Part shown: one piece after another, positions 5,411-51,607 of the stretch
Position numbering within the stretch: position 1 is the stretch's first letter
Layout: the number at the start of each line of letters is the position of its first letter
Source of the DNA: Utricularia gibba
Lineage: Eukaryota; Streptophyta; Magnoliopsida; Lamiales; Lentibulariaceae
Assembly: GCA_002189035.1 (NCBI GenBank)
Contig: CM007990.1
Coordinates: forward strand, 5,208,001-5,272,000
Reading direction: 5' to 3'
Length of the DNA: 64,000 bases
Translations under genes and position numbers: made by a program
Notes under the pieces: generated by a model
What the model was told of the DNA's origin: nothing
Seen by the model: the letters and a program-made list of their open reading frames with translations, nothing else
The model's database searches: none

Positions 5411-6577
5411 ATGTCTTCCTTTTCTCTTCACCCAAATCTCCCCGTACCTTCTCCGCTGCGCAGCACTTCAATCACCAGAAGCAAATCTTCCCAAACCGTT
5501 GCAATCCTACAAAAATCCCTCATTCCACATTTTCAGTTGAGGACTTCCCCTATCCCTTCTTCAGTCTCTGCCAAAACCCCCATCCTTGCCAAGGTACATT
5601 TATAGTCTACTTCCTTGTTGTTTGCGTGTTTTTTTTATTTCGCTGCATTCGAAAGCCTTTCTAGGAATTTTGTGGTGAGATATGCAGAGTTTGAACTGAT
5701 AATAGTCTAGTGGCATCGTTCTTCCTGAACTTGTACGGCATCCCGTCTGATTCCTGGTACTGGAACATGATTACAGAGGTGTGTCCATGTGATACTAGAT
5801 ATCAGTAAGCATAGCTTAAGGTAGACCCAAGTGACGACCATTATATCACACCCGTAGCTCCCTACTTTTTCCAGCAACCTGTTCGTTACAAAGAGCGAAA
5901 TTCAATCCGCTTCCATCGAAACCCGAGATGGGGTAATGCTTTATTGGATTGTGCAGGTGACACAAGGATCGTCTCCGCCATCCTTCACGCTGAAAGACCA
6001 AAATGGGAGGACTGTGAGCCTTTCAAATTTCAAGGGCAAGCCCGTGATTGTCTACTTCTATCCTGCTGATGAGACCCCGGCTGCACCAAACAGGTACGCT
6101 AGAAAACCATCAATGGATCATCTTCCTGTTGTGGATTCTTGTCTAGCATAGGATGTACAGTCTGTATGCATGATCCTTACTGAACAAAAATCAGGCATGC
6201 GCGTTCCGAGATTCATATGAAAAGTTCAAGAAAGCGGGAGCTGAGGTGGTGGGGATCAGCGGAGACGATGCAGCATCCCATAAGGTAACAATCACCAATA
6301 TTTCCTTCACCAAGAAAATCACCACACTGAGCGGTGCATGCATTATTCCTTGGAGCAGGTGTTCGCTGCTAAATACAAGCTTCCCTTCACTCTCCTCAGC
6401 GATGAGGGCAACAAGGTGAGGAATGCATGGGGAGTCCCCTCGGACCTCTTCGGTGCATTGCCCGGAAGGCAAACCTACGTTCTGGACAAGAATGGAGTCT
6501 GCAGGCTTGTTTACAACAACCAGTTCCAGCCCGAGAAGCACATCGAGGAGACTCTGAAATTCCTCCAGGCCAGCTAA
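5411..6577 (+). CDS. PRXQ: Chloroplast peroxiredoxin Q, with a frame break at the catalytic cysteine
   Basis: Thioredoxin-dependent thiol peroxidase that removes hydroperoxides near the thylakoid. Exons are 5411-5593, 5957-6093, 6195-6284 and 6359-6577. Exon 1 encodes a Ser/Pro-rich plastid transit peptide of about 60 residues; the mature part has [46 protein letters not shown] and a C-terminal [12 protein letters not shown]. Expected length is 209 aa. Exon 2 is 137 nt where 138 is needed: the family's ETPGCTKQ is out of frame because the C-run at 6075-6078 is one base short. As written, the peroxidatic Cys is lost and the downstream exons are out of frame. The rest is perfectly conserved, including the resolving Cys in ACAF, so a sequencing or assembly error is more likely than a pseudogene. 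The match to PRXQ is clear. Confidence 0.93.
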
Positions 6578-8668
6578 AAAATCCTGGAAAATTCAACCAA
6601 AAAAGAGATGCACACATTTTTTTTCTAAATTTCTTTATCCTTGTTCCTGAAGTAGAAACCGCTCCATTAGTTGCTGAATAGCTTCTTTCAAAAGAGCCTC
6701 CGCTTCCTCAGTAAATGTCTTAGTAGAATCTGGAATTAGGTGTAGCTATATCACAAGCTCATGTTTCTACGATCTCAATCTGTATTTACTTGAATGATGC
6801 TACAAATCTCCATCAAAATGCTTCTCGATTTTTTTATAATTGAACAAAAGCTAGGGTGGATGGTTTGAAGTTCGACGCGCGTTGTTCAGGCGCTATGTGA
6901 ATTGCTGAGAACTCAACTCAATCTCAACTCAATAACTTCCTGTAATAAACTTCCATGGAGGACGGCAGGAAAAAGGATGCTGAGTCTTTGAGCGTGTACT
7001 CTCAAAAAAGGCCTAACTGAAAAAAATAATCTTATTTTGTATTAAAATTTAAATAATAAATTATTATTTAATAAAATAAAAAATACTCATAGTTGGTTTT
7101 ATTAAGATTAAAAATACTAATAAAATAAAAAATTGATATATATTTATGAATGAGTGTAAAAAAATAAATTAGAATTGATTTATGTAAATAAAATATATAT
7201 AAAATCGTATATATTAATAAGATACTTTATAAATTTATAAATTAAAAAAAGATACTTCATAAATTTATTGATATTATAAACGCATTACATAAATCTATAA
7301 CTTTTAAACATAAATAAATTATTTTGATAATTTATTTGAATAAAGAATATATATATATATAGCATTTCAAAAGTTTATTTTAAAGAAAATTAAATAAATA
7401 TTCGAAACGTAACAACGACTCTAACAATGAAAAATGATTTTCTCGAAAATTTATTTTCCAAAAATCCATTTGGATTTATTATTGAATTTAAATAAATATA
7501 AGAAATTAGATATTTTTATTGAAATATAATATTTAGATTTGGTTAGATCCTCATTTTTATTATAATAAATTATTATTATTTTATTGTATGGTGTGGAAGA
7601 GATTTGGAGGCGTGGTGATCTTTAGACCACGTGGTTTTTTTATTACAAAAATAAAACATTTTATCGTTTTCCGTTTGAGGACACGGGAAAACTGAACGCA
7701 CTTATTGCCCTTTTCCCCCCCCTGGCATGTGCTGTTCACCTCGTGGGCCCAACACCTGGCCCAATTATTCCAACCTTATAGCGCGGCCCTATTCCTCTGT
7801 AATGGAAAAAACAAACCATTAGCCTTTTTCTAGTACGACCATAGGGCGTGTCGCTTCCTGATTGGCTGACGAGTTTGTTTACTATTAGTTAAGGATGAGC
7901 GGCCTACCACGTGCCACTTTTTTATTGGCTCTCGGACATCCTCCCTATCTATCCATTATCCATTATTGACGCTGTCTGCGCCTCTATATATCCATACATA
8001 TTTTTTTGAACTTTTAAATGTTAGAATACTCCCCTTTTATCCACACTCCATCTGCTGCTATGGGTGGAGAGTAAGCGGGTTCATTCCACTGTTGACCCGA
8101 CCCGACTAGGGGGTAGAAAAGCAGCAGCAGTAGTTTGGAGAGTTTTGTGTGGAATGATGGAGGGCTTGTTCTCTTCTCCCGCATCACGGTTATGTGATAA
8201 TGATTGCGACAATCTTAGTCTGATTCCCATGTTCCATCACGTCCGTGACTGGACTTCGCCATGTCCCACGTCTGAACATACCTAGACTCGCACTGTTGTA
8301 GTATACCTGCCAACCGGAGGGAGAAAAGGAACCCCCACCCGGACGAGTATCTTCCTCCTACCAAAACCTGAGCTGTGTACTGGAAATCAAGATTCAAGGT
8401 GTGATGTAAGGCGGTTTGTTTATTACAGACTTTGGGTTTTTGGGATGCAGTTGAGCTTTCAACGTCTCAGGATGAGGTTTCAGAGCTCAACTTGCCGGAC
8501 AAGAACTTATGCGTGTGCCCACCACAATGTTTCAGCCAATAACCTGTCACCTGAAACCTGTTCATTTTTAACGAATCTGATCATTTCTTCTCTTGTCTCC
8601 ATTCCTCCCCTCATTATTAAACCAGACCTAGAAGGAACTTGTGGTTACTTGTGAGGTATTAACATTCA
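6578..8668. promoter_or_regulatory. PRXQ 3' flank, AT-rich spacer, then promoter and 5' leader of the zinc-finger gene
   Basis: 6578-6830 reads as the 3'UTR of PRXQ. 7015-7600 is strongly AT-rich with an (AT)n tract near 7348 and no coding signal. From 7690 the base composition changes: a CACGTG G-box lies at 7908-7913, an ATTGGCT (CCAAT complement) at about 7860, and a TATA-like CTATATATC at 7984-7992. I infer that transcription of the next gene begins near 8015-8030, leaving a 5' leader of about 640 bases before the ATG at 8669. Short ORFs in this leader have no recognisable similarity. Confidence 0.4.
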
Positions 8669-9381
8669 ATGGGGGATGCTGGGAAATGCTCGAGGGATGA
8701 TAACCAACCCCAGTCCATGAATGCTGCATCTGGGGGTGAAGAAGATGGAGAAGAAGGTGTTTTTGGTTCTGGGGTTGAGGAGATCTCTTGCATTTGGCCA
8801 CCCAGAACTTACTCTTGCAGTTTCTGTAAGAGGGAATTCAAGTCTGCCCAGGCTTTGGGTGGACATATGAACGCTCACAGAGCAGATAAGGCAAAGCTGA
8901 GGCAATCCTTGGGTACTCCTCCTGCTGAGATTGATCCTCGCCCTTGGGCTTCTCCCGCTTCTTCCAAGGGAATCGGAGTCTCATCACCCCGATCCATTGA
9001 CTTTGTTATGATCAATGAGGGAAACCTGCCATTCCCACAAGGTATTAGTTGCTCCATTTTAGTTATCATCTAGTGAGCTAGCTGCATTCTCTTTTCCTCT
9101 TACCATTGCATTTCCTCGAGGCTAACATTTTCAAACTTGGATTCTGCTATCCCGGAACACAAGAAAAAGAAAAGAAGAAATCCATGGCTGTGGAGTTTGA
9201 TTTCGGGAGTGGGACCATAAGGGATCGCCCCATGAGCTTGAGATCAGCTGTTGACGGTGAGTTTGAGGCAGAAACGATGGGTTTCAGGAAAAGGGAAACA
9301 GAGGGAAAGCTCCTCTTCTCAGAAGCAACTGCATATGATGATTTGGACCTCGAGTTGAGACTTGGCGATGCTCCAAATTGA
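8669..9381 (+). CDS. SUPERMAN-like single C2H2 zinc-finger repressor
   Basis: Plant nuclear transcription factor of the SUPERMAN/RABBIT EARS/ZFP10 class. Residues about 50-75 form one C2H2 finger, [19 protein letters not shown] with the plant-specific QALGGH helix, preceded by the family's WPPR. The C-terminus ends DLDLELRLG, an EAR repression motif that recruits TOPLESS-type co-repressors. The two parts lie in different frames. They join in phase if an intron runs from the donor at 9042 (CAAG|GTATTA) to an acceptor at 9163 (ACACAAG), giving exons 8669-9041 and 9164-9381. A second in-frame acceptor at 9169 is possible. Most SUPERMAN-like genes I know have uninterrupted coding regions, so the intron is unusual. 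Which family member this is cannot be told. Confidence 0.8.
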
Positions 9382-10340
9382 GGCGAAGATCTGTATGCTC
9401 TTTTTATCTACAGCAACATATGCAGCATGCCTGTTTCTGGTTCACATTTCACAGTTGCTCCCTCTCGAGCTCCCTTATTGTTGCCAAATAACTCCATTCC
9501 ACAACTCAAACTAACAAGCTCTTAGCCACCCATAAAAACCCTAATCTTAAGATGTGTGTGTGTTTGTTTTCAGTGTTTAGAGGGAACTTGGAATATCATG
9601 ATTCTGAACAACAACCAAATGTCGTGAAGTCTAAAGTTTTTGTTACAGCATAAATCACTTGTATTGTAAACCCGGAATCTGCATGAGACATTTCCACCAC
9701 AAAAGGCGCAAACGAGTGAGCAAGTGGTGAGCTCTGAACCTGTGAATCTTGTAATAAAATCGCTCCATCAAGCAATAATCACCATTGATTTTTAAATTAC
9801 ACTTAAAACATTTCGCGAAATGGGGGGCGGACAGTGATTCGCTGGACACGATACCAGCTAGGCCGGGCCCACCACACCCCTAAATCCTTAAAATCAATAT
9901 TTTAAAATCATTAATTTAAATATTCGCATTGAATTGGATTCAAATAAACAATTGATTTTTTTTATATATTTTAGGATAAGTCTAATTAAAATATTACAAT
10001 ATTACAACCAATTAATTATTTTTTTTGATTTCATCAAAATTCAAAATTATTATTTCTATTGCAATCACACAATAAACGTAATTAATTTACTGAAACGCGG
10101 TAAAAGAGGAGTTGACGAGGTCTTCGGTAGTCTTTTTCATTTTTCAAATATTATTAATTGCGTAGGGTGACCGCTTAATCCATTGGCTAAATTAAACCGA
10201 ATTGGCTTCCCCTGAAGAGATTCGATATACTTATCAGTAATTTTACAAGGGCGCAGGTGGGGAAATGCAGAAGCACTCCGGGGGAGTTAATGAGAACAAA
10301 CCTGATACTTGTTTTGCTATGCACAAGTCACACAAGCAGG
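9382..10340. other. Spacer between zinc-finger gene and PRA1 gene (convergent 3' ends)
   Basis: 9382-9650 is probably the 3'UTR of the zinc-finger gene and contains a short (GT)n tract near 9554. 9900-10080 is AT-rich. 10200-10340 would be the 3'UTR of the PRA1 gene on the other strand. I see no gene, repeat or RNA here. Confidence 0.4.
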
Positions 10341-11647
10341 CTACAACTCGCTGTAGTTGCGCCAGACGGCACGAAACTCCTCCCTGAATGTGTTCAGCCG
10401 AGCCTTCAGGTTTGGAGTCCTCAGGCTTGCATGAAGAACGGTTGCTGAACAGAGAGAGAGCCAGAGGGGTCAGAGGAAGATGAGGTTAGAGCAGCAAGAG
10501 TAATAATTGAGGCACGGCATTACCCAGAAGCGCAAAAGCCGAGGCGTAGAGGAGAGTAAGAAGGCCACATGTGAGGAACCAGAGTATGAAGCTCACTGTA
10601 AGGAATATAGATATAGGGTCATTAGAATTGAGAAGATGGTGCCCGTTTTTTTGGAAAGGGGCAATGATCGAGGACTTGTTAAACCTCTCACCTGCAGAAA
10701 ATAAGAGGACAGACACCCATCGAGGCCTTCCACAGACATATATTGCTCGCTTTGCAGAGGGGCGCCCCCGAATAACAGGCCTGAGTAAGAGGAAAGTTTC
10801 AGTTTACAGTTGAAATCAAATTGGCAGCGATAGGTATGAGCAGGCATACTCACGTTAATGGGGGTCTCATTTTTGCAGCAAGATGTGGAGAGAGCTGCCT
10901 AACAGTTCTCGTGAACTTTTCATTGAAGGCAGTTGCAAAGCTGAAGAATAAACATCAACATCAACGACATCAACACGTGAATGGCTCATCTAGTTCATAA
11001 ACTTCAAAAAAAAAAGCACAAAGAGCTCAAAGAGCAGATGCATGTTGGGATATGTATACCTATCGTTCAGAAAAGCAATGCTTAGAGCGGTCATTAGAGC
11101 CGCAAAAATCGCCATCGGTCTCCTGAGGAACCCCATCGCTGAGACTCAAATGCATGCGAATGATTACCAAAACAAAAGCTCATGGAAATCAACCACCCCC
11201 CCCCCCCCCAGAGCAATACATGGTCCACGCTTACCAAGAATGAAGATGATCAGGATGAAATAGTTTGTTCGGTAGCTGCAAAACAAAAAATTGATTACAA
11301 CACACTGTAAAAGCTTGAAATGAAAAATATAACCTGTTCGCATGCCTATCAAAACAAAACTTCAATAAACCATCTTCAAGAAAAAAAAAAAAGTAGGATG
11401 GTACAAGTTCATCCAAATTCACACAACAACCAAATAGTGAAGCATCGTAACACACAACAAATCCAAAGAAGAAAAGAAAGGGAGCGTACTAATAAAGGTT
11501 GCACTTTACGCGACTGCTCCATTTTTCATAGGAGCGAGGAAACGTGAACCGCATGAAGAATTCCGAGGGAGAACGCGGAGGAGACGCCCAATCAACTTCT
11601 CTTAGCGCCTCGATCAAATCTTCTGCAGTTACACTACTCCAATCCAT
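10341..11647 (-). CDS. PRA1 family protein (prenylated Rab acceptor), A-clade like
   Basis: Small ER/Golgi membrane protein that binds prenylated Rab GTPases and helps vesicle trafficking. Seven exons on the minus strand join in phase: 11490-11647, 11235-11275, 11060-11138, 10854-10940, 10692-10780, 10524-10595, 10341-10444, giving 209 aa. The start reads MDWSSVTAEDLIEAL. The PRA1 domain has two hydrophobic pairs: TNYFILIIFILAMGFLRRP and the segment MAIFAALMTALSIAF, then VSVLLFSAVSFILWFL and LLTLLYASAFALLG. The C-terminus FREEFRAVWRNYSEL fits the Arabidopsis PRA1.A group as I remember it. The intron at 11139-11234 contains a 14-base C run (11196-11209). Confidence 0.93.
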
Positions 11648-11819
11648 CTCTCAATAATCCGGCGATTAAATTGAAATCGAAACACGGTAGATGAGCAAAA
11701 CCCTAGAAAATCGTTTGATCTTGGGGAAATCACCGAATTTTCGCTTGGGAAACAAGGCAATGATAGTCGGCTCGAAGGAGATGAAATGTGTAGGAATTGC
11801 ATGTCTAGTCCAAAGGGCC

Positions 11820-11865
11820 TCAATAAGCCCATTGACCGTGATGAGGCCCATTAATCAGGCCCAAT
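11820..11865. promoter_or_regulatory. Site II cluster upstream of the PRA1 gene
   Basis: Three GCCCA-type motifs lie close together: AGCCCA at 11826-11831, GGCCCA at 11845-11850 and GGCCCA at 11858-11863. They are about 180-215 bases upstream of the PRA1 ATG on the minus strand. Such clusters bind TCP factors in plant promoters active in growing cells. The role here is inferred from position and motif only. Confidence 0.5.
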
Positions 11866-12738
11866 ATCCCATATGTTTATGTGTTGCCACCTACCTTCTT
11901 CTCTTGCAGGAAGGGGGGAACTACGTTGCTGTATAGATCATGAGCCAGTGTCGATCTCTCACTATATTCGTGATGAGAGGCACGAATCATGATTCATACC
12001 AAATGTGTTGAAATTAAAGATTCGATAAATCGAATGAATATAAATGAAGATTAAATATATAAGAAACATGAATTATATTTTAAAAAATTAAATATAAATG
12101 ATTATTAATGATTCATAATCTTTTATATACATAACTATTTTACTTTCAATTTCGAATTTTGATTGGTTAGCTCAGAGGACTGCGATTTATTGAGTGTTTG
12201 GTGTGTCATGGATGGAATGGGGATATCAGGGGTGATCCCACATCGGTCTTCAGCCTGGATTAGGTACCGGAATTGTACATTCCTCAGCGATGGCAACTTT
12301 TCAGTTTCCAGTTAACAGCAAAGGAAAAGCTTACCATTACATTAGTTTTGTGAATGATACCTGTTGAAGAAGCAACCTCGGAGATGCTGTCACAGAAAAG
12401 GCGAATGAGAACCCCAATGACATCTCAGAGTTTCATAAACTGACAAGCTTGTACCTGTACTTGGGCAAACTCCAAGCAACTCGAACACAGAAGCTGGATA
12501 ACAGTCAATAACAAAGAAACAATCAAAATCGTGCTCAAGTTCCCCTTCCAGAAGGCCCTGAAACCTTCTTCTTCCCGACAACAAATCAAACCAAGGCCTG
12601 CGGAAAGACTTCACACGTGTCGCAGACAACTGCCCCTTAAAACCAACGTGTAAGAATCTGGGAGTTCTCATGTTTATCATGTCTACACGTAGCCTATCCT
12701 TACTGGGTACGTTGCACACCCCCACCGCCACCTTCCCA
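11866..12738. other. Spacer, no gene identified
   Basis: 12000-12130 is AT-rich; 12170-12740 has mixed composition, as in transcribed but non-coding DNA. A 144-codon open frame on the minus strand (12390-12824) has no similarity I recognise and overlaps the small cysteine-rich candidate in another frame. I do not call it a gene. Confidence 0.3.
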
Positions 12739-12942
12739 TCACCTTTTTGTTTTCCACTGATTCTTCTTATCTGGATGAAGACAAGTGTCGTCCTTGCTGT
12801 AGCAACACACACAGATATCTTCAAAGCACACTCCCCATTTGGAATGGGGAGAAATACAACACTCTCTGTAGTCAGTCGCTACTCCAGAATCAAAATACTG
12901 GAATTCCGAAAATCTGCAAAAAAGAAAACTGTGGCGAATCAC
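12739..12942 (-). CDS. Possible exon of a small cysteine-rich peptide (tentative)
   Basis: A minus-strand frame contains a dense cysteine pattern, CCISPHSKWGVCFEDICVCC, followed by YSKDDTCLHPDKK. The spacing C...C...CxCC...C resembles small secreted plant peptides of the MEG/ESF1 kind, but this is a pattern impression only. A good splice acceptor (TTCTTTTTTGCAG on the minus strand, ending near 12916) precedes it, which would supply the missing first exon with a signal peptide. I could not find that exon. The frame ends in a stop at 12739-12741. It may be chance. Confidence 0.2.
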   Translation of the reverse strand: MIRHSFLFCRFSEFQYFDSGVATDYRECCISPHSKWGVCFEDICVCCYSKDDTCLHPDKKNQWKTKR

Positions 12943-20860: not shown

Positions 20861-23428
20861 ATGCAAAGGGATCCTGTGAAGATCAGGTCCCATAGTACGG
20901 CAAGATCTGTAAAAGAGTTGAAGCGTGTCTTTGAGCCGGAGGGTACTTTGAGAGATCTGGAATCATTGGATGATGTCAAAATGAGAAGCAAGGGATCATC
21001 CTGTGGAGTATCTAGGCAGGGGGCTGATGCATTTTCCGGGGCATGCCCTGTCCTAGAAGAGCCTGGAAAAGGCACAGATGATGAGGTTCTTCGGAACATG
21101 TCCAAGTTACCTGGATTTCTACAGAATGCGAATGAGGACTCTGTTCAAGATAAGGCACTGAATTTTGGTGTTATTGATTGGAAGCGGTTGGAGAAGTGGA
21201 AGTATAATGAACGGATGCCGGGAAAAAATATCATGAAAACGTCCATGGACAGGAAATCAAGCTTTTCTACAAATGGAGTGCCCAAAATCGATCCAACCAT
21301 AGAAAGAACTGCCTCGTTGCAGTCGTCAAGACAGTCCATACCGTCTGGTTCACGTTCCAGCTCAGTTCAGAGACAGTATCCCCCTAGAAGCTCACACCTC
21401 AGTTCATTGAGCAAAAACGAAAACGGCAGCTATAATGAATCTGGAAGTCATTCTGAGCCATCTTCCTTCAAAGATCAAATCTTTCGATACAGAGAGAATG
21501 GTGACGAGGTTATTAAACGTTTTTCATTATCCAAGGCCTGTGCAGAGGAACTCCCTCAGACAAATTTGAACATCAGCAGTACGGAGGATGTAATGGTAGA
21601 AATTCCTTGTAAGGAAGATGTTTCACCCTCAGTTCATAGCAGACAAAAGTTTTCTTCAATTCAACATGAAAACTTAAATACTTGTCCAGGACTTGGGTTC
21701 ACTTATCTGTCTTGCTCAGTGGACAAAGATTTTCCGTTGAATGCCTCAGAATGCTCTCAGCCCAATGGATCCAGGTCCTCATATGATGGAAATTCTGATG
21801 AAGAAACAGGGAATAGATTTTCTGATTTTTGCTCTCAAGAGCTTAACTCTACTGAGTCGCCCTTTGTTAGTGCACACTCTTGTCCTCAACCATCTGACTC
21901 CCCAAGTCAAGAAAATGACCCTGTTGGTCAATATTATGGTTATCCCTCCTCTAACGTTCAAAATTCAATCACATCCTCAATGTCAGAAGCCAGATGTTCG
22001 AGAGTTCCAGGAAAAGCTGTTGAGCCTTCATCATCACATTCTGAGTTTGGTGGCAAAAATCTTGTGAAAGTAAGAGCTCCCTCTCCTTCCCAAAGGTTTA
22101 GCTTTAGCCGTGGAAAGACGAGCAGAAGTTCCAACTTAGAAACCCCAGTAGTTCCAGAATCGAATTCCTCAGGCTCTTCTCTCGTATCTGGCGTGATGAA
22201 GCCTGAAGTTCCTTCTACTATTTCAGGTAGGTTTCAAAGAGACCATCCAAATGCTAATGCAAAGGGAAGATCCAGCCCTTACGCAGACTGTTGGATCCCT
22301 TTCTGAAGCATAAAACTGCTCAATCATCAGAGAGTATTCGGCCCAGGATGTTAGCTTACCTCCGAAACCTAAACCGCACACCAGTGGACCATCTAAGAGT
22401 AAACAGGGTGTGGTGTTGAAAGTTCAAGCTTTTTTGCGGGTAACTGTAAAGGATGAACTTCCCTTTACAAGCTTGTCATACAGACTAGTAACAGCATGCT
22501 AGTCGCGGCTGTAAAGAAGCTGTGGGTTCCCGGGAAACTTGATCCACTAGTGATTTACTCATTCTATTCAGTATGTGGGATCAAGAAAAGAAGCATGAAC
22601 TGGCTCACTAAAGGATCAAATAGCAAAACCTGCAGTCTTGCCTATCGCATGATCGGTCAGCTAAGGATTTCAAAGTCCTGTTGTCCAGAAGTAAGCTGTA
22701 GTGGTTCCAGCAAATGTGAGAAATGGGAAAGTGCATTGTATGCTTCTGATCCGCAGCAAGACTCCAAGCACAATTCTTGTGCACTCAAGAATGAGATTGC
22801 AGCCATTATTACAAATACCACAAATGAGGATTGTAATCATGATGAAGATAAAGATTTTCGTGGCACGGCAGTCATTCTTCCTGGTGGTGACCATGGTAAG
22901 CCCACTACAGGAGCACCATCTTCCTTAGTCAGCAGATGGAAGGGATCATGTGATTGCGGCGGTTGGGATATCGGATGCAAGCTGCGAGTACTTAAACAAG
23001 TCAGTGAAAACAGAAAGAATCTTCAAGAACCACTTCCCAACTCACCCACTGGCAGTTTAAAACTTTGTTTAGAGGTATGATGATCCTCCCTCACTTGTAT
23101 TATTATACTTCTAACCTATAAAAAGGTACACGATCGCAATGCCTTGCCATTTTCCTTGTAGGGTCAAGATAGCAGGATGGATCCTATCCTGAGCATCGAA
23201 CCATTGGACAGCGGGTTGTATTCCATCAAGTTTGATGATTCCGTGCCGGTATTAGAGGCTTTTGCTACATGTGTAGCACACCTTACTCCCCTAAAGTTCC
23301 CTGGAACCATCACCATGGTTACCAAAGAGCAAACAGATGTGGGAACTGATCCTACAAAAATCCCGGAACCATTCCGAGTAAAGGACCTTCCGGTGAAGAC
23401 CCCCCACGCCTCCGTTGGCAGGATCTGA
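20861..23428 (+). CDS. DUF3527 domain protein, frame broken three times
   Basis: Large plant protein of unknown role with a Ser-rich disordered N-terminal half and a C-terminal DUF3527 domain. Exon 1 is 20861-23074, exon 2 is 23162-23428. Landmarks are VIDWKRLEKWKY, the broken SPLRRLLDPFLK, LLVAAVKKLW, GAPSSLVSRWKGS, CDCGGWDIGCKL and the last exon SGLYSIKFDDSVPVLEAFA. Reading from the start, the frame shifts by minus one at three short C runs (22276-22278, 22342-22344, 22461-22463). Adding one C at each restores continuous similarity, about 827 aa. As written, the first shift ends the protein at 22304-22306. Start choice: the ATG directly after a TTTCAG acceptor; an open frame continues upstream to an ATG at 20774. 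Family assignment is from the DUF3527 motifs I know. Confidence 0.88.
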
Positions 23429-26464: not shown

Positions 26465-28673
<2,209 letters not shown>

Positions 28674-31784: not shown

Positions 31785-32338
31785 CTCAAAGTGACCCTGA
31801 TACTCGGTAAAGTCAAGGTTGAAACGCCCAAATACGAGGTTCGATCAAACCTTTTTGTTAGAATGTAATCCGGAAGTGTCCGCCGGCGGTGATCGCGGGA
31901 GTTACATACGATCCCGCCGACTTTAAATCCGGCAAAGACGGCGGATTCACTCTCTTCGACGATTACATTGGTGCCTTCAGGAAGGAGAAGAATATAAAAC
32001 CCGAGCCCGTTGCCATGACGGCTCGCTGCCGACGAAGACCTCGGAGAATGTAGCGATGACGTTGCCGGTGGACCGGTGGCTACGAAGGACGGAAGAGAAC
32101 TGATGAAGACAACTTTTGTATTGCCGCCAAATTACACAACGGCTGCGACTGCGCATATGCCGCTAGATGGTAGAGTGCTGATTAGGGAAGAGGAGGCGAA
32201 GAAGTACGCGGCGGAGAGGTTCAGTGTGGTGGCGCGTGAGTACGTGATTGCTGAGAAGGGAAAGACGCTTAGGACATATTTGGAAGGAGATTTTGTCACT
32301 TGTTTTGGATGTGTTGCACGAATGATCCAAGTCAGATG
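31785..32338 (+). pseudogene. SOUL/heme-binding family pseudogene
   Basis: SOUL proteins are small heme-binding proteins. Pieces of one are recognisable in three frames: LGKVKVETPKYE (about 31803-31838), then CPPAVIAGVTYDPADF and GKDGGFTLFDDYIGAF with PEPVAMTA (31877-32020), then TKTSENVAMTLPVD, and finally KDGRELMKTTFVLPP and DGRVLIREEEAKKYAAERF (32076-32230). The core EPVAMTA matches the family's EKIAMTAP. Frame breaks occur near 31840, 32021 and 32070, no start codon is found upstream, and the family's usual end (PPWTLP...NEV) is replaced by unrelated residues before a stop at 32337-32339. The breaks are not in long homopolymers, so I read it as a true relic, though some could be sequence errors. 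Confidence 0.75.
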
Positions 32339-32464
32339 AACTCTATATAGGCTTCGTATAGGTCCAGATAGCGCAATGTACAAACCTTGTCAGCCCAGGA
32401 ACAGCCTCTCTGCACACACAGTTTCTTGGTTCTTTCTTTTCACAAAAACCTTGTGTGTTACGTA

Positions 32465-35158: not shown

Positions 35159-38648
<3,490 letters not shown>

Positions 38649-40065: not shown

Positions 40066-41654
40066 ATGCTGCAGATTCGGCTAAGCAAGCCGGCCACAGA
40101 TGCTGGTGGGAGTGTTAAACCTGGGCCCACGGAGTCAGTCAATGTTGCATGCCCAGGTCATCTTGTCTTAGCGGACCTTCCTGTGGCGAAGAGTTTAGGT
40201 ACACCGTTTTCCGGTGCTGTTGTTAAAAATGTTGGCCGAAGATCACGTCGGCAGCTTGGAGAACGTGTACATATCTGTGTGCAGTGTGAATTTCCTATTG
40301 CTATTTATGGCCGTCTGGTAATGCTTCATGTCTTTCTGCAGTATTTATCGTTCGAATTTTATAGCATTTCGTTTTTTGTAACAGTCTCTTGTTCTTGCAG
40401 AGTCCCTGTGAACATGCCTTCTGTCTGGACTGTGCCAGGAGTGACTTTGTGTGCTACCTGTAAGGCGCATTTGCTTCTTTATTCATTGGTCAGATGCTAT
40501 CTGTTGCCAAATCTAACTCATTGTTGTTTTTGTCTGGTCCTTGAAATTTACAGCTGCCATGAGCGCATTCAAAAGATCCAGACGATCAAAATGATGGAGG
40601 GACTCTTCATCTGTGCAGCCCTCACTGTCTCAAGTCTTTTTTAAAGAAGAGTGATTTTGAGTTTCATATTAATGAGAAGCATTCTGATCTTCTTCGCCAT
40701 GGTAAGGAAAAAGAAGGAAATGATTTTGAGGCTACCAGCTCCAGGAAACTTTCGGCTTCTGATTCTACTGTGCAAACACCTGCAAGATCAGTTTTTTCTC
40801 CTGGCTCAAAGTCCCAGAATCAAGATTATGACGAGAAATCACAGCGTGCCCAGGTTATTGAGCAGCAAAATCCTAGATCATCCTTGCAAATAAAACCGTC
40901 ACAACCCTTTTCTACACAGTTTCCAAATCATCCATATGCGCAACACCCTGACATCAATCAGTACCAAGTCCCTGATAGAGCAACTTACGGGAGTTTCCCT
41001 CCGCAAAGTTTTGGTCCCAACAGTGGTACGCAATTTGGTTCAAGTCAGATTTTTTCCCCTTATACATGGGATTCCAAAATGTGTTTCTTGATCTAATGAC
41101 CGATTTCTTCTGTACCAGTTAATCAAAATCCAACGGTGCCACCACATCAATATCCTTATGGTCTGTATTCATCTGATGTCGCACAACATTATGGTGGAGC
41201 TCCGCATGACTTGTCGAGGTCTGATTCTGCAACTGAGGCTGCACAGGGACAGGGTCCTTTGTCAAGTTACCAGCATGGCCCTTCTGGACACAGAATGAAT
41301 GTTGCACAAAACTATCCTCAGAATTGGAACTTAGGACCTACTTCGAAGGGTTTGGAACCACCTCTGGCTTCTCAAAGTGCCAATACCCTGCCTTTTGATC
41401 CACAAGGAAAAGGATTTTTCGCAATGGATTATGCACAAAATATGGAGGCCAGGCAAGGTGGAAGGACTGTAGATCCACGGGATGGAAATAGAGTACACCC
41501 CTTGTCTCGTCACCCGTTACCTTCTCTGCCGCAGCCCTACTTGGTACAAACTCAACGTGGTAGATCATTCCCTAGTGACGGAAGTCATGATGCGCCTCCA
41601 GGCTTTGGATGGCAGCCTGAAAGACGTGATAGCTTTGGACATGAACTGGACTGA
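40066..41654 (+). CDS. HAKAI: E3 ubiquitin ligase HAKAI homolog (m6A writer complex), one frame break
   Basis: RING E3 that in plants and animals belongs to the complex adding N6-methyladenosine to mRNA. Exons 40066-40317, 40401-40459, 40554-41037 and 41119-41654; expected 443 aa. Residues about 72-125 form the RING and adjoining C2H2 (HYB) domain: ICVQCEFPIAIYGRL, SPCEHAFCLDCARSDFVC, YLCHERIQKIQTIKM, FICAAPHCLKSFLKKS, FHINEKHSDLL. The rest is a Gln/Pro/Ser-rich tail ending RRDSFGHELD. In exon 3 the C run at 40619-40621 is one base short: the text reads AALTVSS and stops, but one more C restores AAPHCLKSF and the downstream frame. The tail from there on is open to the natural stop. Probably a sequence error. 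Identification rests on the distinctive RING order and tail. Confidence 0.93.
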
Positions 41655-41957: not shown

Positions 41958-42870
41958 TCATTGAAGTATCTTGTCGATGCATACATCATGAAATCTTGTG
42001 TACAACTGCAGCAGTTTTCTGTGTCCGATTAGTGCATAGTTGTCGATATCGTCCTCGTAGATTTCATAAAACGCAGGAACTGTAAGAACAGCAAAAATAC
42101 CTGCAGCAGACAAACCAGGTATCATGTAGGAAACCATCTAGAAGATGAGCTGTGGTAATCATGTTATCCGCTTACAGATATAGCACAAGCTGAAGGCATC
42201 AAGCTGGCTCCCAAGAATGCTGATCACGAGAAGACCAGCTGCCACTTGGATGAATCTTCTTGTGTCTCGTCCCGTGGCAATTTCCTCAAACATGAAGAGC
42301 ACATCATTGACACTTCTGCTTATGGTGTCTGCAATTTCTCTCGTCGTCTCCTCCGAGAGATGCAGATGAGGCAGCGGTGGGGAAGGCCTGATTCAATTAG
42401 CTTTAGCAGTTGAGTTTTATATGATTCTGCCAACTCATCGAGCCTAATGTGTATCCTCAATCAAAGTTTCTGGATTGTGCAAAAAAGTGTAGATTTTACG
42501 CTAGACATGCTGTCTTAGAGGGAATCAATCAGCGTTCCCACCTGTAAAAGATTGCAGATGACTTCGCCCACACAAACAAGATGATGAAGAGAAGCAGCAG
42601 CACATTTGAGACGAACGACAGGAAAGTATAACCGTATATCTCAAACACCATCCAACTAGCCACAGTGAAGATCAAAACCTGCAGTGTGTAATCTTTTCTT
42701 CTCCAGAGAATTATATCCGCAACTACGAAAACATCAAGAAGGGAAGATCATCAAATCCGAGAAGACAAAGGAAGCTATTTTCCCACTCTTGAGAAACATA
42801 CATACCAGAGCCCCCCGAAGATCTCGTGAACTGTCCTCTTCCTGTAGAACAGCCGATCTGATGAACCCAT
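41958..42870 (-). CDS. RTNLB: Reticulon-like protein (RTNLB), frame break in exon 1
   Basis: ER-membrane curvature protein. Exons on the minus strand: 42806-42870, 42542-42722, 42176-42387, 41958-42100; about 200 aa. The reticulon domain begins DRLFYRKRTVHEIFGGG, then ADIILWRRKD, a long hairpin VASWMVFEIYGYTFLSFV / NVLLLLFIILFVWAKSSA, the loop PPLPHLHLSEETTREIADTI, a second hairpin FIQVAAGLLVISILGSQLD / IFAVLTVPAFYEIYED. Exons 2 to 4 join in phase. Exon 1 is two bases short (or one too long) for exon 2: the run of six C at 42811-42816 (G on the coding strand) would need eight to give GGGSVADI. It converges with HAKAI, 303 bases apart. Subclass not determined. Confidence 0.88.
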
Positions 42871-43917
42871 GTCTCCAAGTGGGGAATACACGCCACGAAA
42901 CCGACTGAATCATAAGCCTGGGCGGCCTCAGTCACCCCGAGCTGTAAAGAAACCAACAACAGCTCAACCCATCAATGACTGCTTCCTTTCTAATAAAGAA
43001 TCTACAGTAGACCTTGGGCTTTTCCCTGCGGATCAGGGAGGGGGCAGATGGGACCCGTTCATTAGGACCTGAAAATATCCATTTTTTTGGAGGGGATTCA
43101 TTTTAGGGGCAGCGCAAGATTAAACTCCCGGAGACAGTTGAGAAAGAGACAACGGCTCATAACGCCGACGTTGGGATAAGTTCTTTCAGATTGCCAGCCA
43201 GCACTCCGTTTTAATGTTATCTGTGAAGCATTTCGTTTCATCGGAGACGGCCTTCAGCTCACCTCAGGCGCACAGGCAAAACAGAGGCGATTTCTATGTA
43301 TGTTTACCAGAAAAAAGCACAAAAAGGAGAGCAGTCCGGAAGTGGCACAAGAGGGATGCCAGCGGAACAGCCGCATTCAGGTATTTGACCAATGGATAGT
43401 ACATGGGACTCGTTTCTAATAACCAATCATTCATATCATCATCAATTCATCTTCATTATCATTCAGCCCTGCATAAACGCATACAATTAACAAAAAAAGG
43501 CGTATGAGCGCGCCTTGGGAAAAAAAAATAATCTCTTCCCTTGTAAGGTTCCAAGAGAGGATCTCTTGTACGGCCTGAGTGAACACTGGCACGAGGCGGC
43601 GAAAGCCAAAATCTCATCTCAGCCACTGAGTGAACAAATTGCAGAAGGGAAAAAGAAACCACATTACTGAAATGAACATAGAGTTTGGTAACAAGTAGCA
43701 AAATGAAACGGTTATGGGGTGGGTATATCATACCTTCAAAAGACTAACTGCGCGGCAAGCAGATGGCGGCTGAGTAGGGAAAAACAGAGCCAGCCCTTGA
43801 GCCAGTGCCCACCATCCCCGGCGCGGCGCAAAATCTGGAGTCGTGAAAACGCCTCCAGAAAAAAAAATAGATCACTGCAAAAAGCTCGTTTTTTCATGGA
43901 AGACGTGTGTTTTTGAG
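42871..43917. other. Reticulon promoter and CPL2 3' region
   Basis: No gene recognised. 42871-43200 should contain the RTNLB promoter and leader on the minus strand; 43440-43917 is probably 3'UTR of the CPL2 gene. Short open frames in both strands show no family motifs. Confidence 0.35.
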
Positions 43918-46900
43918 TCACACTTCAGAAGCACTGTGTTTGGAGAACCCGTTATTGGCCAGGGGTTCTTCTGATGCAGGCTTCACAGGATCCCAGAGGA
44001 ATCCATTTTCATTGTCTAGACTGGGTTTGTGACTGTCATCAACCACCATCCCAGAACGCAATGAAACATGTGAAATGTAGCCATCTGCAGAGACATGTGT
44101 GCGATGATTGGTCTCCATGCAAAATGCTTGAGGCAAATGGGCATCAGCACCACAAAGGGTTTGGATTGATTATTGGGGCGATACTTACCAGCCAAATTGC
44201 GGAGGGCATTCTCAGCAGCTTGTTGATGGGCATCCTTTCTCGTCTTCCCTATCCCAGAACCAATCTTCTCACCGGTGTAGAACACCTACGAGGATACTTT
44301 AATAAGTTTCAAACTCTCCCCGAGGAGCAAAGAGGATATTGAATGCACTGGTAGCATTTCGGCTTATCAAAAGGATTATCTTAAGCTGACTGCATCATGG
44401 AACAATAATTTTGTGGAGCTAACCTCTACTGAGAAGCCCAAATCGCTGCTTGCTCTCGCAACCACCTTAAACTCGACCTAAAGAGAAAAAGTGAAGACAT
44501 GAGGAGGAAAGTCAGAAGAAAAGGGTAAAAAGTTTATTCACCTTCGAATTGCATCTTCTTCCGATCTCCTGTAGTACTCTAACGGATAGAGATTGCAATA
44601 GATTTGTTTCAACTCCATCCACTTTAGTTTCTCCACCTTCAAAGGGTGGTTGGGAATGATGATTAACGAGACCAGACTCTACAAATTGCGGGAAATGATG
44701 TATTAATCAATGAAACTATAAAACGGCTGAGATTTTAAGTCCATGAAAAAAAGCATATTACTCTTTTCTTATATTATTTTCAGTTGCCTTTATCCATAGG
44801 ACTTTGCGTTAAAAAAAAAAAAAAGCACAGTTACAGAGCATATGTATGATAAGTCTACCCTGATATATACCTGCAATATTGTTTGCCTGAGTGGAGACTC
44901 TGCTACTGACATCATACCCTGTATTAGACTGCACAAAAAAGACAGTTGTTCACATGCCCCATTCCACTGGAGAAATAAAGCAAACAGCCAAGTATCAACC
45001 TCGCCATTCCTCACTTGAGGTACATGAGGCTGTTCAGAGGTACTGCATAACGTTGCACCCTTGATTAAATTCTGCCGACCTCGTTGTCCATTCAAAGGAT
45101 CAGATTCCTGGGGTACTACTGAATCTTGACCACCTGAATTTGCTCCATTAGTGTCTTCCTCCACTAGCCAGCCTCCTTGAGATGGTCGGTGAGATGAATC
45201 AGGCCAAGGAACTTTAGATATCAAAGGTGGCTCCATAGAACGGCTCCTGCTATCTCTGCGAACTAGATCTCCGAACAAGCTAGGCTCTGATTGAAGCAGA
45301 AAAGTGACCAATCACATACAAGGTCAAAATATGAACAAATTAATACAGTAAAATCTAGTTGCGAAAATGTTTTCATAATGTGATTTTCACCATGATAACA
45401 TAATAAAAAATATTGAGCAATAAAGGACCGTACTTCCAGAAGGTAGTAGTCCCTTCGTTGATGCAAGAGCTGCTATTCCACTGGATGCAGAAGGTGGTAG
45501 AATATTCGAACTTTCAGGTTTCAACTCAGAATTATTGATAGGCAACGGACGAGAGACTGCACTTTCTACGGCCTTTTCCTCCTGACAAGAAGGGAATTAG
45601 AAAACAATCATAAGAATTATGTTTAGAGAAGTATAAAAAAATGAGATGTGCAATCTACCATAGTGCGAAATCTCTGGGCAACTTCTTGTCCAACCATTCC
45701 TTCAGCAAAAGGTGCATTTGGATTGCCATTTGGCATAAAACTAGCATCCTGATGAAATAACACGATCAAAATGCCATGATATTGAAATGAATGACAATTT
45801 ACCCACCCACCTCTGATATCATGTAATTGCTAACGTCTGGAGCACAAGGTAGATTCCCTGCCTCATCTTCGTAGAAAATCTCAGAGATTCTGCGTAGCAG
45901 ATTTTCATCGAACTCTCTGATTTTTAGGGAAAAATAACCAAAATATTAACATCAACTAGAGAAAAAACTCAGTAATGAGAATTACAGCATCATGATGAAA
46001 ATTCAACTTACTTGAAGAAACAAGTCCTCACATTGCATGCAACATTTCTAGCTACACAAAGGACAGCAAGAGAGTTTGCAGTCTGGAGAGGGAAAGAGAT
46101 CATTATGATTAAAACAATGCACAAGACATGTGTTTTCTTAATCAAAATCTCTTTTCAAAGGGAAGAAAAAAATGCAGGATAGAGATTCAAATGAAGGAGG
46201 AGAAAGAGCCAGAGACAGAAGAAATACCTCAGCCTGTGGGGAATAATATGGCGTGAATGGAGGAACAACATGTACACGAGGTTGGTCCATATCTTCCCAC
46301 ACTTTCATGCGATCATCTATCACCATTGCCATACTTGGATGACAGCTGCCATCCTGGAAGACATTGAGAAGAGATTTCCTTGACCCTGAGAGAAATTATA
46401 CAAGTGGGATTTATATTATTTGAGCATTAGTTCAAACAATCATCTGATAGTGTACAGAATATCATACAAAAATTCAGAATCTGCATACCAAAATGGAACA
46501 CAAACACATCCTTTGAGGGAGAATCATATGATATAAAAAAAGGTAATAATTCCTGGCATGGAAAAGATATAGCAACCACAAATAAAATCCCAACCTGCTT
46601 TGACACAAACAACACGGTCCAGCAACTGCTTTGCGTTAATCAGGCGTGCTTCTGGATCTAGAAGTCTCCACATTTCCAGAGCATAATCTCTTTCAGCCAA
46701 TGTACAGACAAAAACTTCAAATCTTTTTCGTTCTCTAGCAATTAAATAATTTTTTAATTCATCCCATGCAGGTCGCAATCTGACTAAGACGCTGGTGTCA
46801 CGGTTCTGAAAAAAGGAATATACTCATTACATAATAAAAACTGATAAAAAAGGGTAAATGAGGAATCGTAAGAACAAATCCAGGTCGAACAATGCGAGTA

Positions 46901-47851
46901 ATAGAAAATCTCCCAAGTCCTATTCTAACCTCAGGATTAATGCGAGTAAGAACAATGCTCTTCTCAGGCAATCTGACAACAGGTCGAACAACACGGTGAG
47001 TCTCACCAGAATTGAGAATAACTTCTTCTTGCTGCATATTATAAACTCTTCCACTGTCCACAACGCTGTCTGTCTCTGCATACTGCTTCAGTAATGCTCG
47101 ATCTTCAATATATCTCTTCATTTCTGCTGTCATCCCAGACTCCCGGATAGGGTCAGTTTCACGACCAATCCAAGCAGTCAAAGCTTCAATCCTATCCTCA
47201 AATGACTTCATTGTGTTAGCAACAATCAGTGTCTCATCAAGATCGAACACAATTGCTAGGCAACGAGTATTCAACATCCATAAACATGTGTCGTACAAAC
47301 CACATGGCACTGAGTAGCACCAAAAGCATGGAAACTTCTTCTGTTTGCTTGGCATTGCCACTAAATGTATTTCCTCAGATCCATGTAACACAACTGCTGT
47401 CTACATATTTTACCGAAACAAAAGAAAAGAACGTATTAGAGAAGACTCAAATTAACGCCACAAACACCAAAAACTTCACCCAATATTCCTCACGCGTGTC
47501 ACCGAGTAGATTTATCGTTACAACAAAACAAAAGAAACGTTAACTAAAACAACGGTGAAGTCAAACCTTCAGTTCATAGAAGCATGCTGCGTGAAGGTTA
47601 ATCAACGGAGACTGCTCATAGTTACAATTCGAATCTCCATTAGAACAGGGCTCGAGCTTGCACCGCACTGATGAGTACGCTACTGTCTGAAGAACTGATA
47701 GAGGATGACATCTCTCACTGTTTGTCGATATACGGTTGATACGAATCTCATTGTTCGGAAATTGAAAACTCCCCTCCACCGGAACCGCCTCCAGCACTCC
47801 TAAGTAAACATCCCCATGATAAACCACGGATTTAAACCCTAATCTATTCAT
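43918..47851 (-). CDS. CPL2: RNA polymerase II CTD phosphatase-like protein, CPL2 type
   Basis: Nuclear phosphatase that removes phosphate from the RNA polymerase II C-terminal repeat and tunes stress and hormone genes. Fourteen exons join in phase: 47567-47851, 46930-47400, 46595-46805, 46228-46385, 46012-46082, 45811-45916, 45659-45748, 45434-45581, 45000-45286, 44871-44928, 44542-44678, 44424-44477, 44189-44285, 43918-44084; 779 aa, close to Arabidopsis CPL2. The start [14 protein letters not shown] is CPL2-like; an upstream in-frame codon is not ATG. The FCP1-type catalytic motif [16 protein letters not shown] lies near residue 140, and [14 protein letters not shown] near 370 supplies later acidic residues. 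One double-stranded RNA-binding domain (ALQEIGRR-like [32 protein letters not shown]) lies near residues 640-720. No frame problem. Confidence 0.95.
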
Positions 47852-48706
47852 CTCCCCCAAATCGATGATCACAGAAAACGGAGACCACAACACTTCTATT
47901 CTGCTGAAAAATCATCTGAGACCAAAAACCGATCGATGACCACCGGCGACCAACGCATTCCGAAACCTCACACACTCTCTCTCTCTCCCACCCCCTGCCG
48001 CGCTTCTCTCACTTAACCTGGTCGCAAATTTGAACGACATGGGGTGTCACCGGCTTTATATAAATGAGCTGCGACCCTCATAATACCTAAATGGGTCTAG
48101 TTTCCTAGTTAATTACGGATGTGCCACGCAAACGCACGAAAGCTCGCAATACGCGTGGCTGCAGATAAGGACGTTAAAAAATTCCTCGGATGATCTCGAC
48201 GGTCGATCTTGAGAGCCTCATCTGGGCATAATAATAATAATGGAGATTTGGCGACCCATATGTGCAATTAACATGGAAAACGTGGTCTTTTCTATCAAAA
48301 ACCTCAGTGTTTTAAAATTGAATTAAATATTTTTAAATTTCAAAAAATTTTAATTCGCTATAAAAAAAATGTTCCCTAACTAATAACGGGATATCTAATT
48401 GGACGGAGTCCTATCCCGACCCGATAACACAATCATATCAACTTAAAGAACTATAAATGTTCTGATCAGGGTATGCTAACCTCAGGAGAAGGATACAGAA
48501 GCCCCTTATAACATGATCAAACGCTATATACACACCAGACTGAGCAAGGGGGGAACAATGCACCAAAGTGTACCTCATACATCACAGAGAGGTGATGCAA
48601 GCAAATCCAGGTGATGGTGCCAGATGCGATCTCGTGTATTTCCTCAGGCAGAGGAGTGAAATGCAGACATGGAAACTGTCAGTTACCTTCGCTGAGAGTA
48701 TTATGT
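47852..48706. promoter_or_regulatory. CPL2 promoter with TATA box
   Basis: On the minus strand a TATA box (TTTATATAAA) lies at 48055-48064, about 200 bases upstream of the CPL2 ATG. A (CT)n tract near 47970-47985 is in the predicted 5'UTR. 48290-48410 is AT-rich. 48480-48706 is likely the 3'UTR of the LIMR gene. Confidence 0.55.
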
Positions 48707-51607
48707 TCATGATGAAACATGGAGCCTTCCGCTGATTTTTCTTCTTCTCCACCCCTGCGGAAGCACCATAATATGAGATAGGATCGTTAGAGCTGTTTAG
48801 GGGAAAAAGGCTATCTATACGGTGAGAAAACTTACGAAGGCTGCGTAGTATAAGAACGTGAGGCCGGCTAGAATGACAAACCCGATTTGGAAAACATTAT
48901 ACCTGAAAAGATAGCACCGTTCTAGTGGGATAGAATGCAAGAAATGATGGTGACAGAGTAGTAGAAGAACAACTAGGTACTGACTTGTATAGATACTTGA
49001 TTCCACGGAGGGACTGCAGAGTGTGCCCAAATATTTCTTGAGCTGCTGTTGCCTGGGAGTAATATGCGAATGCCGTTGCACAAAACTGAATAACACTGCA
49101 CCACCGCGATTGAAACAATCTACTCTGTAAGCGCGATTGAGTAAAAAGCATATACAGATGGACCACAAGCGATCCGGGCAGCTACCTGATTGAACAAAGA
49201 AGTATGAGACCGACGTTGAAAAGGAATGAGTTCATGAGGGTAGCTCCCCATCTGTCGAGAAGAATAATTTTCAGCTACAATAGTCACCGTCTTCAGATAT
49301 ATGATACACAAAAGTAGTGAGCGTACTTCATAGGATGGATTGTGATGAACGCCAATTTGAGGCCCAGCATTGTTGCACCAGCAACCACAGCAATCAACAA
49401 GTAGAAGCAGAAGAATGCAAATGCTGCTGTTCCCAAAAGACCTAGGAGAGAGAGCCATAAATAGTTATGAACAAAAAGACGGGAGTATCGCAATGTAAAT
49501 GAGAACACGCTAAGCTCTAACTCCGATGAATAATAGCATGAAGGAGATTCATTTACCCCAGGCATCATCCAATCTGATGAAGACCTCATTAAGAAATGGA
49601 GAAAGGGGAGGGTTGATCAGCAAATAAATGATGATATGTGCAACCCAAGCCACAGAAACGATTAAACTGCCCAGAAAAATAAGTAATTTTATGCACAGGA
49701 TTTGTGGTGGCAAGGTTACGGATAAAAGCGTAGGAGCTTACCCCACAACGCCTAGTACCAGCTTAGCTAGATAGCCAAGTACTGTAAGAGCCCATGTAGT
49801 CTCAGCCTGAAACGTACAAAATTCAACATAACTTAGACCCTTCTCATTGTTTCAACTAACCATTCCTCCCAGCGCCATCTGTAGCATGCAAGGGCTCCTT
49901 CTCCTTATAGTAGTGCAGAATCAAACAAACAAATACAAATCTTCAAGATGTATTAGCTCAACATCACCTTTTCACCTTGAGGATACATCTCCTCCAATGA
50001 CTTCACATCGTCTTCCAGCTGAAGCAGTTCCTAAAAACACCAAGGTGTATGGCAGCAACAACTTCAATGCATTGTATTTTCAATTAGAATAAGGCCTGGA
50101 GTGGCGGGTAGTTGCAATCCTACCTTCTCAACAGCTTTCACATTTTTACGCCATTTCCTTCCCTTGCTTCCACTTCTTTCTTCCTGATGAAGTGCATCAG
50201 CCGTTCTTTTCAGTTCTTTTGCTTTTTTCCCAAGTTCGGTTGCTTCCTGCATTAACAGTAGAGAAATAGGAATCCAAGCCCACAATAGAAAAAACATAAG
50301 TCTTGAACTGAATGAGAATTAGACTGCAAAAGGATGTAATACCCTGATATACTGAGAGCGAGTAATAACAGCCTTTGGTCGACGAACAAACGAAAATATA
50401 AGTCCAAGCGGAAGGCAAGCAATTCCAATACCACCAAATATCTAAATAATTCGAAAGGCAAAATATCAGCTTGCATAATCCATCAAATAAATATTAGTTT
50501 GCAGACTTAATAAATGCCATATCCATAAAGAACACACATCTCTGAAATCTAAAAGCCAGTGACATAAATATTTCCAAGGTAAATGGTTTCCAATGTCACA
50601 ATGATAGACAATATATCTCATAAAAAGAATGAAAGGTGGTACGGTGATAATTTTAGAATGGAAGGGCATACAGTAAAAAACACAGATCCAACAATCGTAG
50701 CTAATGCAACGATATATTCAGGGAAAGTGGTACGCATAGTCCATGTCGTCTCAGCAGAAGCGTTAGCAGCATGTGCAGAGCACTGAAAATTAGATAACGG
50801 TGTAAAAAGTTAAAATTTATACACTGAAATCATAAGATGGTATTACAATGAAACCTCGATCTTTGCTGACCTGCATTGCTCCACTTCCAATGCACGGCTG
50901 GCTGCTGGAGAAATCCCACGATGATGGAAAGGAAGCAGTAGTAGAAGAAAGATGCATAACGGTGAAATCCACATACCCCACGAGCCCTTTAACACAAGCC
51001 ATACAAAATTGTTGTAGCATATGTAAGGCGCTAGGATAAAACAACATACGTGAACCTGAGAGTACCGAAGCAACTGTGAATTAAATTACCATACAAAATT
51101 CCCAAAATTAGCGCACATACAACAGCAGTCGCAATCACCCACGCTAACGCACTTTTCACCCTCTTCAAAACGCTCCTAAAACCCATATAAAAAAGTCAGA
51201 AATTCAGAACGAGATAAAGTTACCAGATACCTTAGAAACGACAAAAACAGGAACACACTTGTCCAAGTCGCCTTCGTAGTAAAACATCGCAAAAGGAATG
51301 ACAAAGAAAACGAGAACCGCGTCAATAATGTAAACGGCCAGCCACAAATCCTTCATCGGCAGCGTGAGCCTACACGCGCCGTTGTAAAGCGAATTCCGAC
51401 AGGCCTGCCGGTTAGCCACATCGGCAGGGAGCATGAGAATCGAGATTGCAGCAATCGAGAGCCCCAAAACCACAACGAACTTTGGGAAATAAGCCTGGTT
51501 CACGTCATCTGGGTGCTGATAATTGACGAGGAGGTAGACGTTGAAAATGAGAACCAGGACGCAAACAATTATCGCGACGATGAGCAGCGCTAAATTGAAA
51601 TCCCCAT
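48707..51607 (-). CDS. LMBR1-like (LIMR) multi-pass membrane protein, frame break at the start codon
   Basis: Conserved multi-pass membrane protein of the lipocalin-receptor/LMBR1 family; role in plants unclear. Fourteen exons: 51259-51607, 51090-51175, 50871-50986, 50672-50782, 50343-50441, 50124-50246, 49968-50030, 49742-49806, 49557-49666, 49327-49441, 49186-49251, 48985-49095, 48836-48902, 48707-48754; 509 aa once repaired. Hydrophobic segments alternate with motifs LLVNYQHPDDVNQAYFPKFV, KDLWLAVYIIDAVLVFF, ATELGKKAKELKRTADAL, NPPLSPFLNEVFI, GLLGTAAFAFFCFYLL, ATAAQEIFGHTLQSLRGIKY. The start needs ATG GGG GAT TTC; the text has ATGGGGATTTC (G run complementary to 51602-51605), one G short, so as written the ATG runs into a stop after five codons. 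Everything else is open. Confidence 0.93.

What the first reader, a model, noticed from the sequence alone, without database searches (positions are those of the whole stretch)
6075..51605. Systematic loss of bases in G/C homopolymers breaks conserved genes
Eight frame breaks occur in otherwise highly conserved genes, and each sits in a run of C or G: 6075-6078 (PRXQ), 22276-22278, 22342-22344 and 22461-22463 (DUF3527), 38606-38608 (eL33), 40619-40621 (HAKAI), 42811-42816 (RTNLB), 51602-51605 (LIMR). All go in the same direction: the text lacks one base, or two in RTNLB. Other G4/C4 runs are intact, for example in BSK and LKR/SDH. Independent pseudogenisation of six genes, two of them essential, all by G/C-run deletion, is not credible. 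The likely cause is undercalling in the assembly. Automated annotation here will truncate or split these genes.
Basis: partly seen in the sequence, partly recalled or inferred. Interest (0 to 1): 0.7.

Follow-up and report, generated by a model that had tools for sequence, protein, structure and literature searches.

The report
G/C-run undercalling in a plant assembly
Several normal plant genes in this stretch look broken only because the genome assembly very probably dropped single G or C bases, so the breaks are most likely a sequencing artefact that will mislead gene annotation rather than real gene loss.

Summary
The frame breaks are real features of the text. The eL33 break lies in the C6 run at 38526-38531, not at GGG 38606-38608, which is a normal splice acceptor. 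I found two more in a SOUL gene (32024; about 32062-32073), at CC/GG doublets. That makes ten sites, eleven missing bases and no extra base, always G or C by position.

The effect is assembly-wide. Outside the window one base is missing at G/C runs in two HSP70 genes, an actin, a beta-tubulin, a CYP710A-like P450 and 2 of 17 tRNA-Ala genes. Broken HSP70s stay under strong purifying selection on both sides of the break. Among runs of four or more, 10 of 136 G/C runs are broken against 0 of 379 A/T runs.

The genome (100.09 Mb, 516 contigs) fits the Utricularia gibba PacBio-only HGAP/Quiver assembly. Quiver's weakness in homopolymers is published. Undercalling is by far the best explanation, but no reads were available to prove it. 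Not every break is an artefact: a tandem BiP copy, another HSP70 and a tubulin retropseudogene look genuinely decayed. Biological interest is low; the value is as an annotation warning.

The parts
6075..6080 (+). PRXQ exon, CCCCGG lacks one base just before the catalytic-site motif GCT
   Evidence: AhpC-TSA scores 41.9 and 30.6 bits as two pieces, 132 bits when read through with X; aligns without gap at the break to a solved peroxiredoxin
22276..22278 (+). DUF3527 gene, CCC lacks one base (break 1 of 3)
   Evidence: DUF3527 N-terminal part matches (E 1.2e-4) only when the three breaks are read through, no match in the single frame
22342..22344 (+). DUF3527 gene, CCC lacks one base (break 2 of 3)
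22461..22463 (+). DUF3527 gene, CCC lacks one base (break 3 of 3)
   Evidence: the following ORF carries DUF3527 at 73 bits
32024..32024 (+).
   Evidence: SOUL 29.5 bits as a piece, 47 bits read through
32062..32073 (+). SOUL gene, second missing base, placed only to within a few bases (GCC/GTGG)
38526..38531 (+). eL33 gene, C6 run lacks one base (corrected position)
   Evidence: two intact paralogues L050, L051; read through, it aligns end to end with tomato eL33 7qiw without gap
38606..38608 (+).
   Evidence: phase-0 intron in the same place in L050 and L051
40619..40621 (+). HAKAI zinc-finger exon, CCC lacks one base
   Evidence: read through, best PDB match is Hakai, weak (E 0.017)
42811..42816 (-). 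RTNLB exon end, G6 (minus strand) lacks two bases
   Evidence: intact paralogues L054, L057, L059, L062 show GGN GGN GGN NNN G|GT
51602..51605 (-). LIMR gene, G4 directly after the start codon lacks one base
   Evidence: LMBR1 94.8 bits in the following frame; no in-frame ATG otherwise
5142..5214 (+). Intact tRNA-Ala(TGC), used as query: 2 of 17 full-length family members in the genome lack one C

Best explanation
The breaks are consensus errors of the assembly. In a long-read-only assembly (very probably Utricularia gibba, PacBio, HGAP plus Quiver) the consensus step occasionally merges neighbouring identical G or C calls and writes a G/C run one base, rarely two, too short. In coding exons this appears as a -1 or -2 frame break; in tRNA genes as a missing C in the T arm. 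The plant's genes are intact. Shown: the missing bases, their direction, their G/C context, their occurrence in other contigs, and preserved coding constraint. Inferred: that the true DNA has the longer run, the merging mechanism, and the identity of the organism and pipeline.
For: Ten sites, eleven missing bases, no extra base, all at G/C positions. Reading through restores family matches (PRXQ 42 and 31 to 132 bits; DUF3527 none to E 1e-4; SOUL 29 to 47 bits) and gap-free alignment to tomato eL33. Intact paralogues in the same genome show the expected length for eL33 and RTNLB. Same lesion elsewhere: HSP70 C451 and C496, actin C1, beta-tubulin C414 and CYP710A-like P450 C1, tRNA-Ala C451 and C98. 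HSP70 dN stays at or below 0.074 against dS of about 1 to saturated on both sides of the break, like intact controls. G/C against A/T runs of four or more: 10/136 against 0/379, P 1.3e-6. U. gibba was assembled from PacBio reads only with HGAP/Quiver, N50 3.4 Mb (PMC5793159); G000 is 100.09 Mb with contigs of about 3.4 Mb and four contig lengths that are exact multiples of 500. Homopolymers are a known Quiver weakness (PMC4853030, PMC5458083).
Against: No raw reads, RNA-seq or second assembly could be consulted. Published Quiver cases concern runs of six to nine bases and include an extra base, whereas most sites here are short (three written, four expected) and purely losses. Two SOUL sites are at doublets. 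The window's rate (8 of 52 G/C runs) is higher than in HSP70 (2 of 84; P 0.007), so coverage or selection effects must be assumed. Denominators rest on hand-placed exons. The missing base often falls at a wobble position, so its identity is not certain.
Confidence: 0.93

Rival explanations
1. Real, very recent deletions: the plant has a mutational bias that shortens G/C runs, and these gene copies are fresh pseudogenes or segregating alleles.
For: U. gibba has an unusually reduced genome and fractionated duplicates (PMC10663240). Real frame breaks do exist here: a BiP tandem copy broken identically in contigs C304 and C241, which otherwise differ by 16 mismatches in 4194 bases; a tubulin retropseudogene; an HSP70 on C255 with further disruptions. 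Several broken genes have intact paralogues.
Against: The probable real cases lie outside homopolymers and some carry further damage, unlike the sites in question. Three independent losses in 190 nt of one otherwise conserved gene, losses only, G/C only, and no relaxation of constraint do not fit pseudogenisation. Insertions and A/T runs are absent (0 of 379).
Confidence: 0.05
2. The genes are truly written this way and the cell restores the frame by transcriptional slippage or programmed frameshifting at G/C runs.
For: Breaks sit in slippery-looking G/C runs; coding constraint is kept on both sides.
Against: tRNA genes carry the same lesion, where recoding cannot help; intact paralogues use the ordinary frame; no shared context beyond G/C is seen; doublet sites are not slippery; functionally unrelated families are hit.
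Confidence: 0.01
3. Some of the breaks are wrong gene models: introns or alternative starts mistaken for frame breaks.
Against: Each remaining site has conserved residues on both sides with no room for an intron, and most have a family match that needs both frames; the RTNLB exon end is fixed by paralogues.
Confidence: 0.01

Closest known systems
Residual homopolymer indels in PacBio CLR assemblies after Quiver consensus (e.g. TAL effector genes, PMC4853030 and PMC5458083)
   Same: Single-base length errors of G or C homopolymers that shift the frame of functional genes; long reads only, Quiver polished.
   Different: Published examples are runs of six to nine bases and one class has an extra base; here losses dominate, in runs of about four, and also at doublets.
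Gene-fragmenting errors in long-read assemblies (Kastor, PMC12007338)
   Same: Deletions at homopolymers of about four to five bases pseudogenise conserved genes and can be found by comparison with relatives.
   Different: That study is on nanopore bacterial assemblies, with A/T runs affected more than G/C; here A/T runs are spared in coding DNA.

Membership tests
Consensus undercalling in a long-read assembly | Errors are length changes in homopolymers, in one direction | tested here: met
   8 of 10 window sites in runs of three or more, all losses; two at CC/GG doublets
Consensus undercalling in a long-read assembly | Occurs across the assembly, in unrelated and in non-coding genes | tested here: met
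   HSP70, actin, tubulin, P450, tRNA-Ala on other contigs
Consensus undercalling in a long-read assembly | Affected genes show no loss of selective constraint | tested here: met
   HSP70 dN at most 0.074 against dS of about 1 to saturated on both sides of the break; eL33 dN 0.04 upstream of its break
Consensus undercalling in a long-read assembly | Assembly made from long reads without short-read polishing | tested here: inconclusive
   Review states HGAP/Quiver from PacBio reads only for U. gibba; that G000 is this assembly is inferred from size, contiguity, 500-base contig lengths and one DCL locus without Dicer_dimer (with PMC8333044)
Consensus undercalling in a long-read assembly | Accurate reads support the longer run | not testable with these tools
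   No reads held
Genuine pseudogenes | Breaks of varied type, with further stops or relaxed constraint | tested here: not met
   Met only by other loci (tubulin retropseudogene L084, HSP70 on C255), not by the broken HSP70 and eL33 genes tested

The most novel reading that the evidence does not exclude
Utricularia gibba (or this clone) really loses single bases from G/C runs at a high rate, leaving many freshly broken genes and tRNAs: a live, base-specific deletion bias in a shrinking plant genome.
Probability: 0.04. Interest if true: 0.75.

Novelty: not a real feature. Interest (0 to 1): 0.2.

Why it matters
If correct, gene models in this assembly that cross G/C runs cannot be trusted, and claims of gene loss, truncation or pseudogenisation in this species need reads or transcripts behind them. 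A rough rate is 2-4% of G/C runs of four or more in the HSP70 and tRNA-Ala genes sampled, and about 15% in this window. The breaks could inflate counts of lost genes in a plant studied for genome reduction. One published truncation, DCL3, was checked by its authors with transcripts and RACE (PMC8333044); I find no Dicer_dimer match at that locus, so it does not look like one of these breaks.

Tried and rejected
A zinc-finger gene (8669-9381) and several P450/actin candidates looked broken but are introns or intact. Comparing near-identical contigs and duplicates for indels gave too few events. Histone table: no broken copy evident, no DNA fetched. P450 table: too many natural introns to give a clean rate. 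The primary U. gibba genome paper is not held. I found no held paper that documents G/C-specific losses in short runs for this PacBio chemistry.

Full report
Setting. The window is contig C2, 5208001-5272000, of a 100.09 Mb plant assembly in 516 contigs. It fits Utricularia gibba: size, many contigs of about 3.4 Mb, several contig lengths that are exact multiples of 500 (8,500,000; 6,192,500; 3,452,500; 2,492,500), and four dicer-like loci of which only one, C213, lacks a Dicer_dimer match, as reported for U. gibba DCL3 (PMC8333044). A review states that U. gibba was assembled with HGAP, which uses PacBio reads only and polishes with Quiver, contig N50 3.4 Mb (PMC5793159). The link between the 500-base lengths and Quiver's working window is my own knowledge; the identification is an inference.

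The eight sites. In PRXQ the conserved stretch VYFYPADET and the following GCTKQ are in different frames; AhpC-TSA scores 41.9 and 30.6 bits in two pieces and 132 bits when read through with an X. In DUF3527 the frame moves three times in 190 nt and returns to the start; the single frame gives no Pfam match there, the read-through gives DUF3527 positions 4-117 at E 1.2e-4. HAKAI read through aligns with Hakai in the PDB, weakly (E 0.017). In LIMR the conserved start MGDFNLALLIV is split directly after the ATG.

Corrections. eL33: two intact paralogues (C304 and C451) have the intron in phase 0 after ATG|GTAA and resume at CAG|GG; the window copy has the same junction, so GGG 38606-38608 is an ordinary acceptor. 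The break is in the C6 run 38526-38531, and the read-through protein aligns end to end with tomato eL33 without a gap. RTNLB: intact paralogues all end this exon GGN GGN GGN NNN G|GT, so exactly two bases are missing. Addition: a SOUL gene (31862-32336) has two -1 breaks at a CC and a GG-type site; SOUL rises from 29.5 to 47 bits when read through. Total: ten sites, eleven missing bases, none extra.

Chance. In the coding DNA of the broken genes a random one-base deletion touches a G/C run of three or more in 8% of positions and only an A/T run in 16%. Counting runs of four or more in window genes and HSP70 genes, 10 of 136 G/C runs and 0 of 379 A/T runs are broken (P 1.3e-6). The window (8 of 52) is worse than HSP70 (2 of 84, P 0.007) and tRNA-Ala (2 of about 51, P 0.09).

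Elsewhere in the genome. Without choosing by context I looked for frame breaks in HSP70 and fetched short stretches of candidates from actin, tubulin and P450 tables. One base is missing at a G/C run in HSP70 on C451 (AAGGG/AGT) and C496 (ATCCC/ACG), actin on C1 (C6 run), beta-tubulin on C414 (GGGG, placement slightly ambiguous) and a CYP710A-like P450 on C1 (CCC in the heme-cysteine motif FGAGPHQC; the subfamily name is from my own knowledge of the motif). Of 17 full tRNA-Ala genes, one lacks a C in CCCCC and one a C in CCCC, none has an extra base. The tRNA cases locate the loss exactly and cannot be explained by coding effects.

Breaks that are probably real. A tandem BiP copy is broken at ACC/ATG, outside a run, in both C304 and the nearly identical contig C241. 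HSP70 on C255 is broken at CC/G with further disruptions. An intronless tubulin copy on C1 has stops and many changes. These are the pattern true decay gives.

Constraint. Broken HSP70 genes have dN of 0.02-0.04 upstream and 0.006-0.074 downstream of the break with dS of about 1 to saturated, as in intact pairs. The eL33 copy has dN 0.04 with dS 0.9-1.6 upstream of its break. So these genes have been maintained up to the present or very near it.

Verdict. Undercalling is best supported (0.93). That Quiver leaves homopolymer length errors, with false frameshifts in functional genes, is published (PMC4853030, PMC5458083). What I could not find documented is the strict G/C bias in such short runs and the near absence of insertions; that detail, and the locally high rate, remain unexplained without the reads. 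Stepwise: missing bases and their context are shown; true length of the DNA, mechanism and species are inferred.

Noticed in passing
   Followed up: partly
window 1200-1325: Plastid-like piece: group II intron domain (RF00029, 54.8 bits) next to a trnK-like 3' exon, apparently plastid DNA within an LKR/SDH intron.
   Followed up: partly
C304:2234323-2238962 and C241:11334-19737 (L011, L024; L010, L022, L023): Tandem BiP-type HSP70 copies; C241 (31 kb) matches C304 at 99.5-99.7% and looks like a second haplotype or redundant contig; both share one frame break outside a run.
   Followed up: partly
G000 C213:2761967-2762970: Probable DCL3: RNase III pair without any Dicer_dimer match at E 0.001, in line with the published truncation and not resembling a homopolymer break.
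   Followed up: partly
L084 (C1:5059600-5059940): Intronless, stop-containing alpha-tubulin copy: probable processed pseudogene.
   Followed up: partly
L083 (C1:2388540-2388960): P450 with a CYP710A-type heme motif (sterol C22 desaturase by motif) broken exactly at the heme-cysteine motif by a missing base in CCC.
   Followed up: yes
contigs C1, C2, C409, C505: Contig lengths are exact multiples of 500 (8500000, 6192500, 2492500, 3452500), suggesting a windowed consensus caller.
   Followed up: no
L036 (C451:956505-956574): tRNA-Ala(TGC) with a compensatory acceptor-stem change (A-T to T-A against its siblings) but one C short in the T arm.
   Followed up: yes
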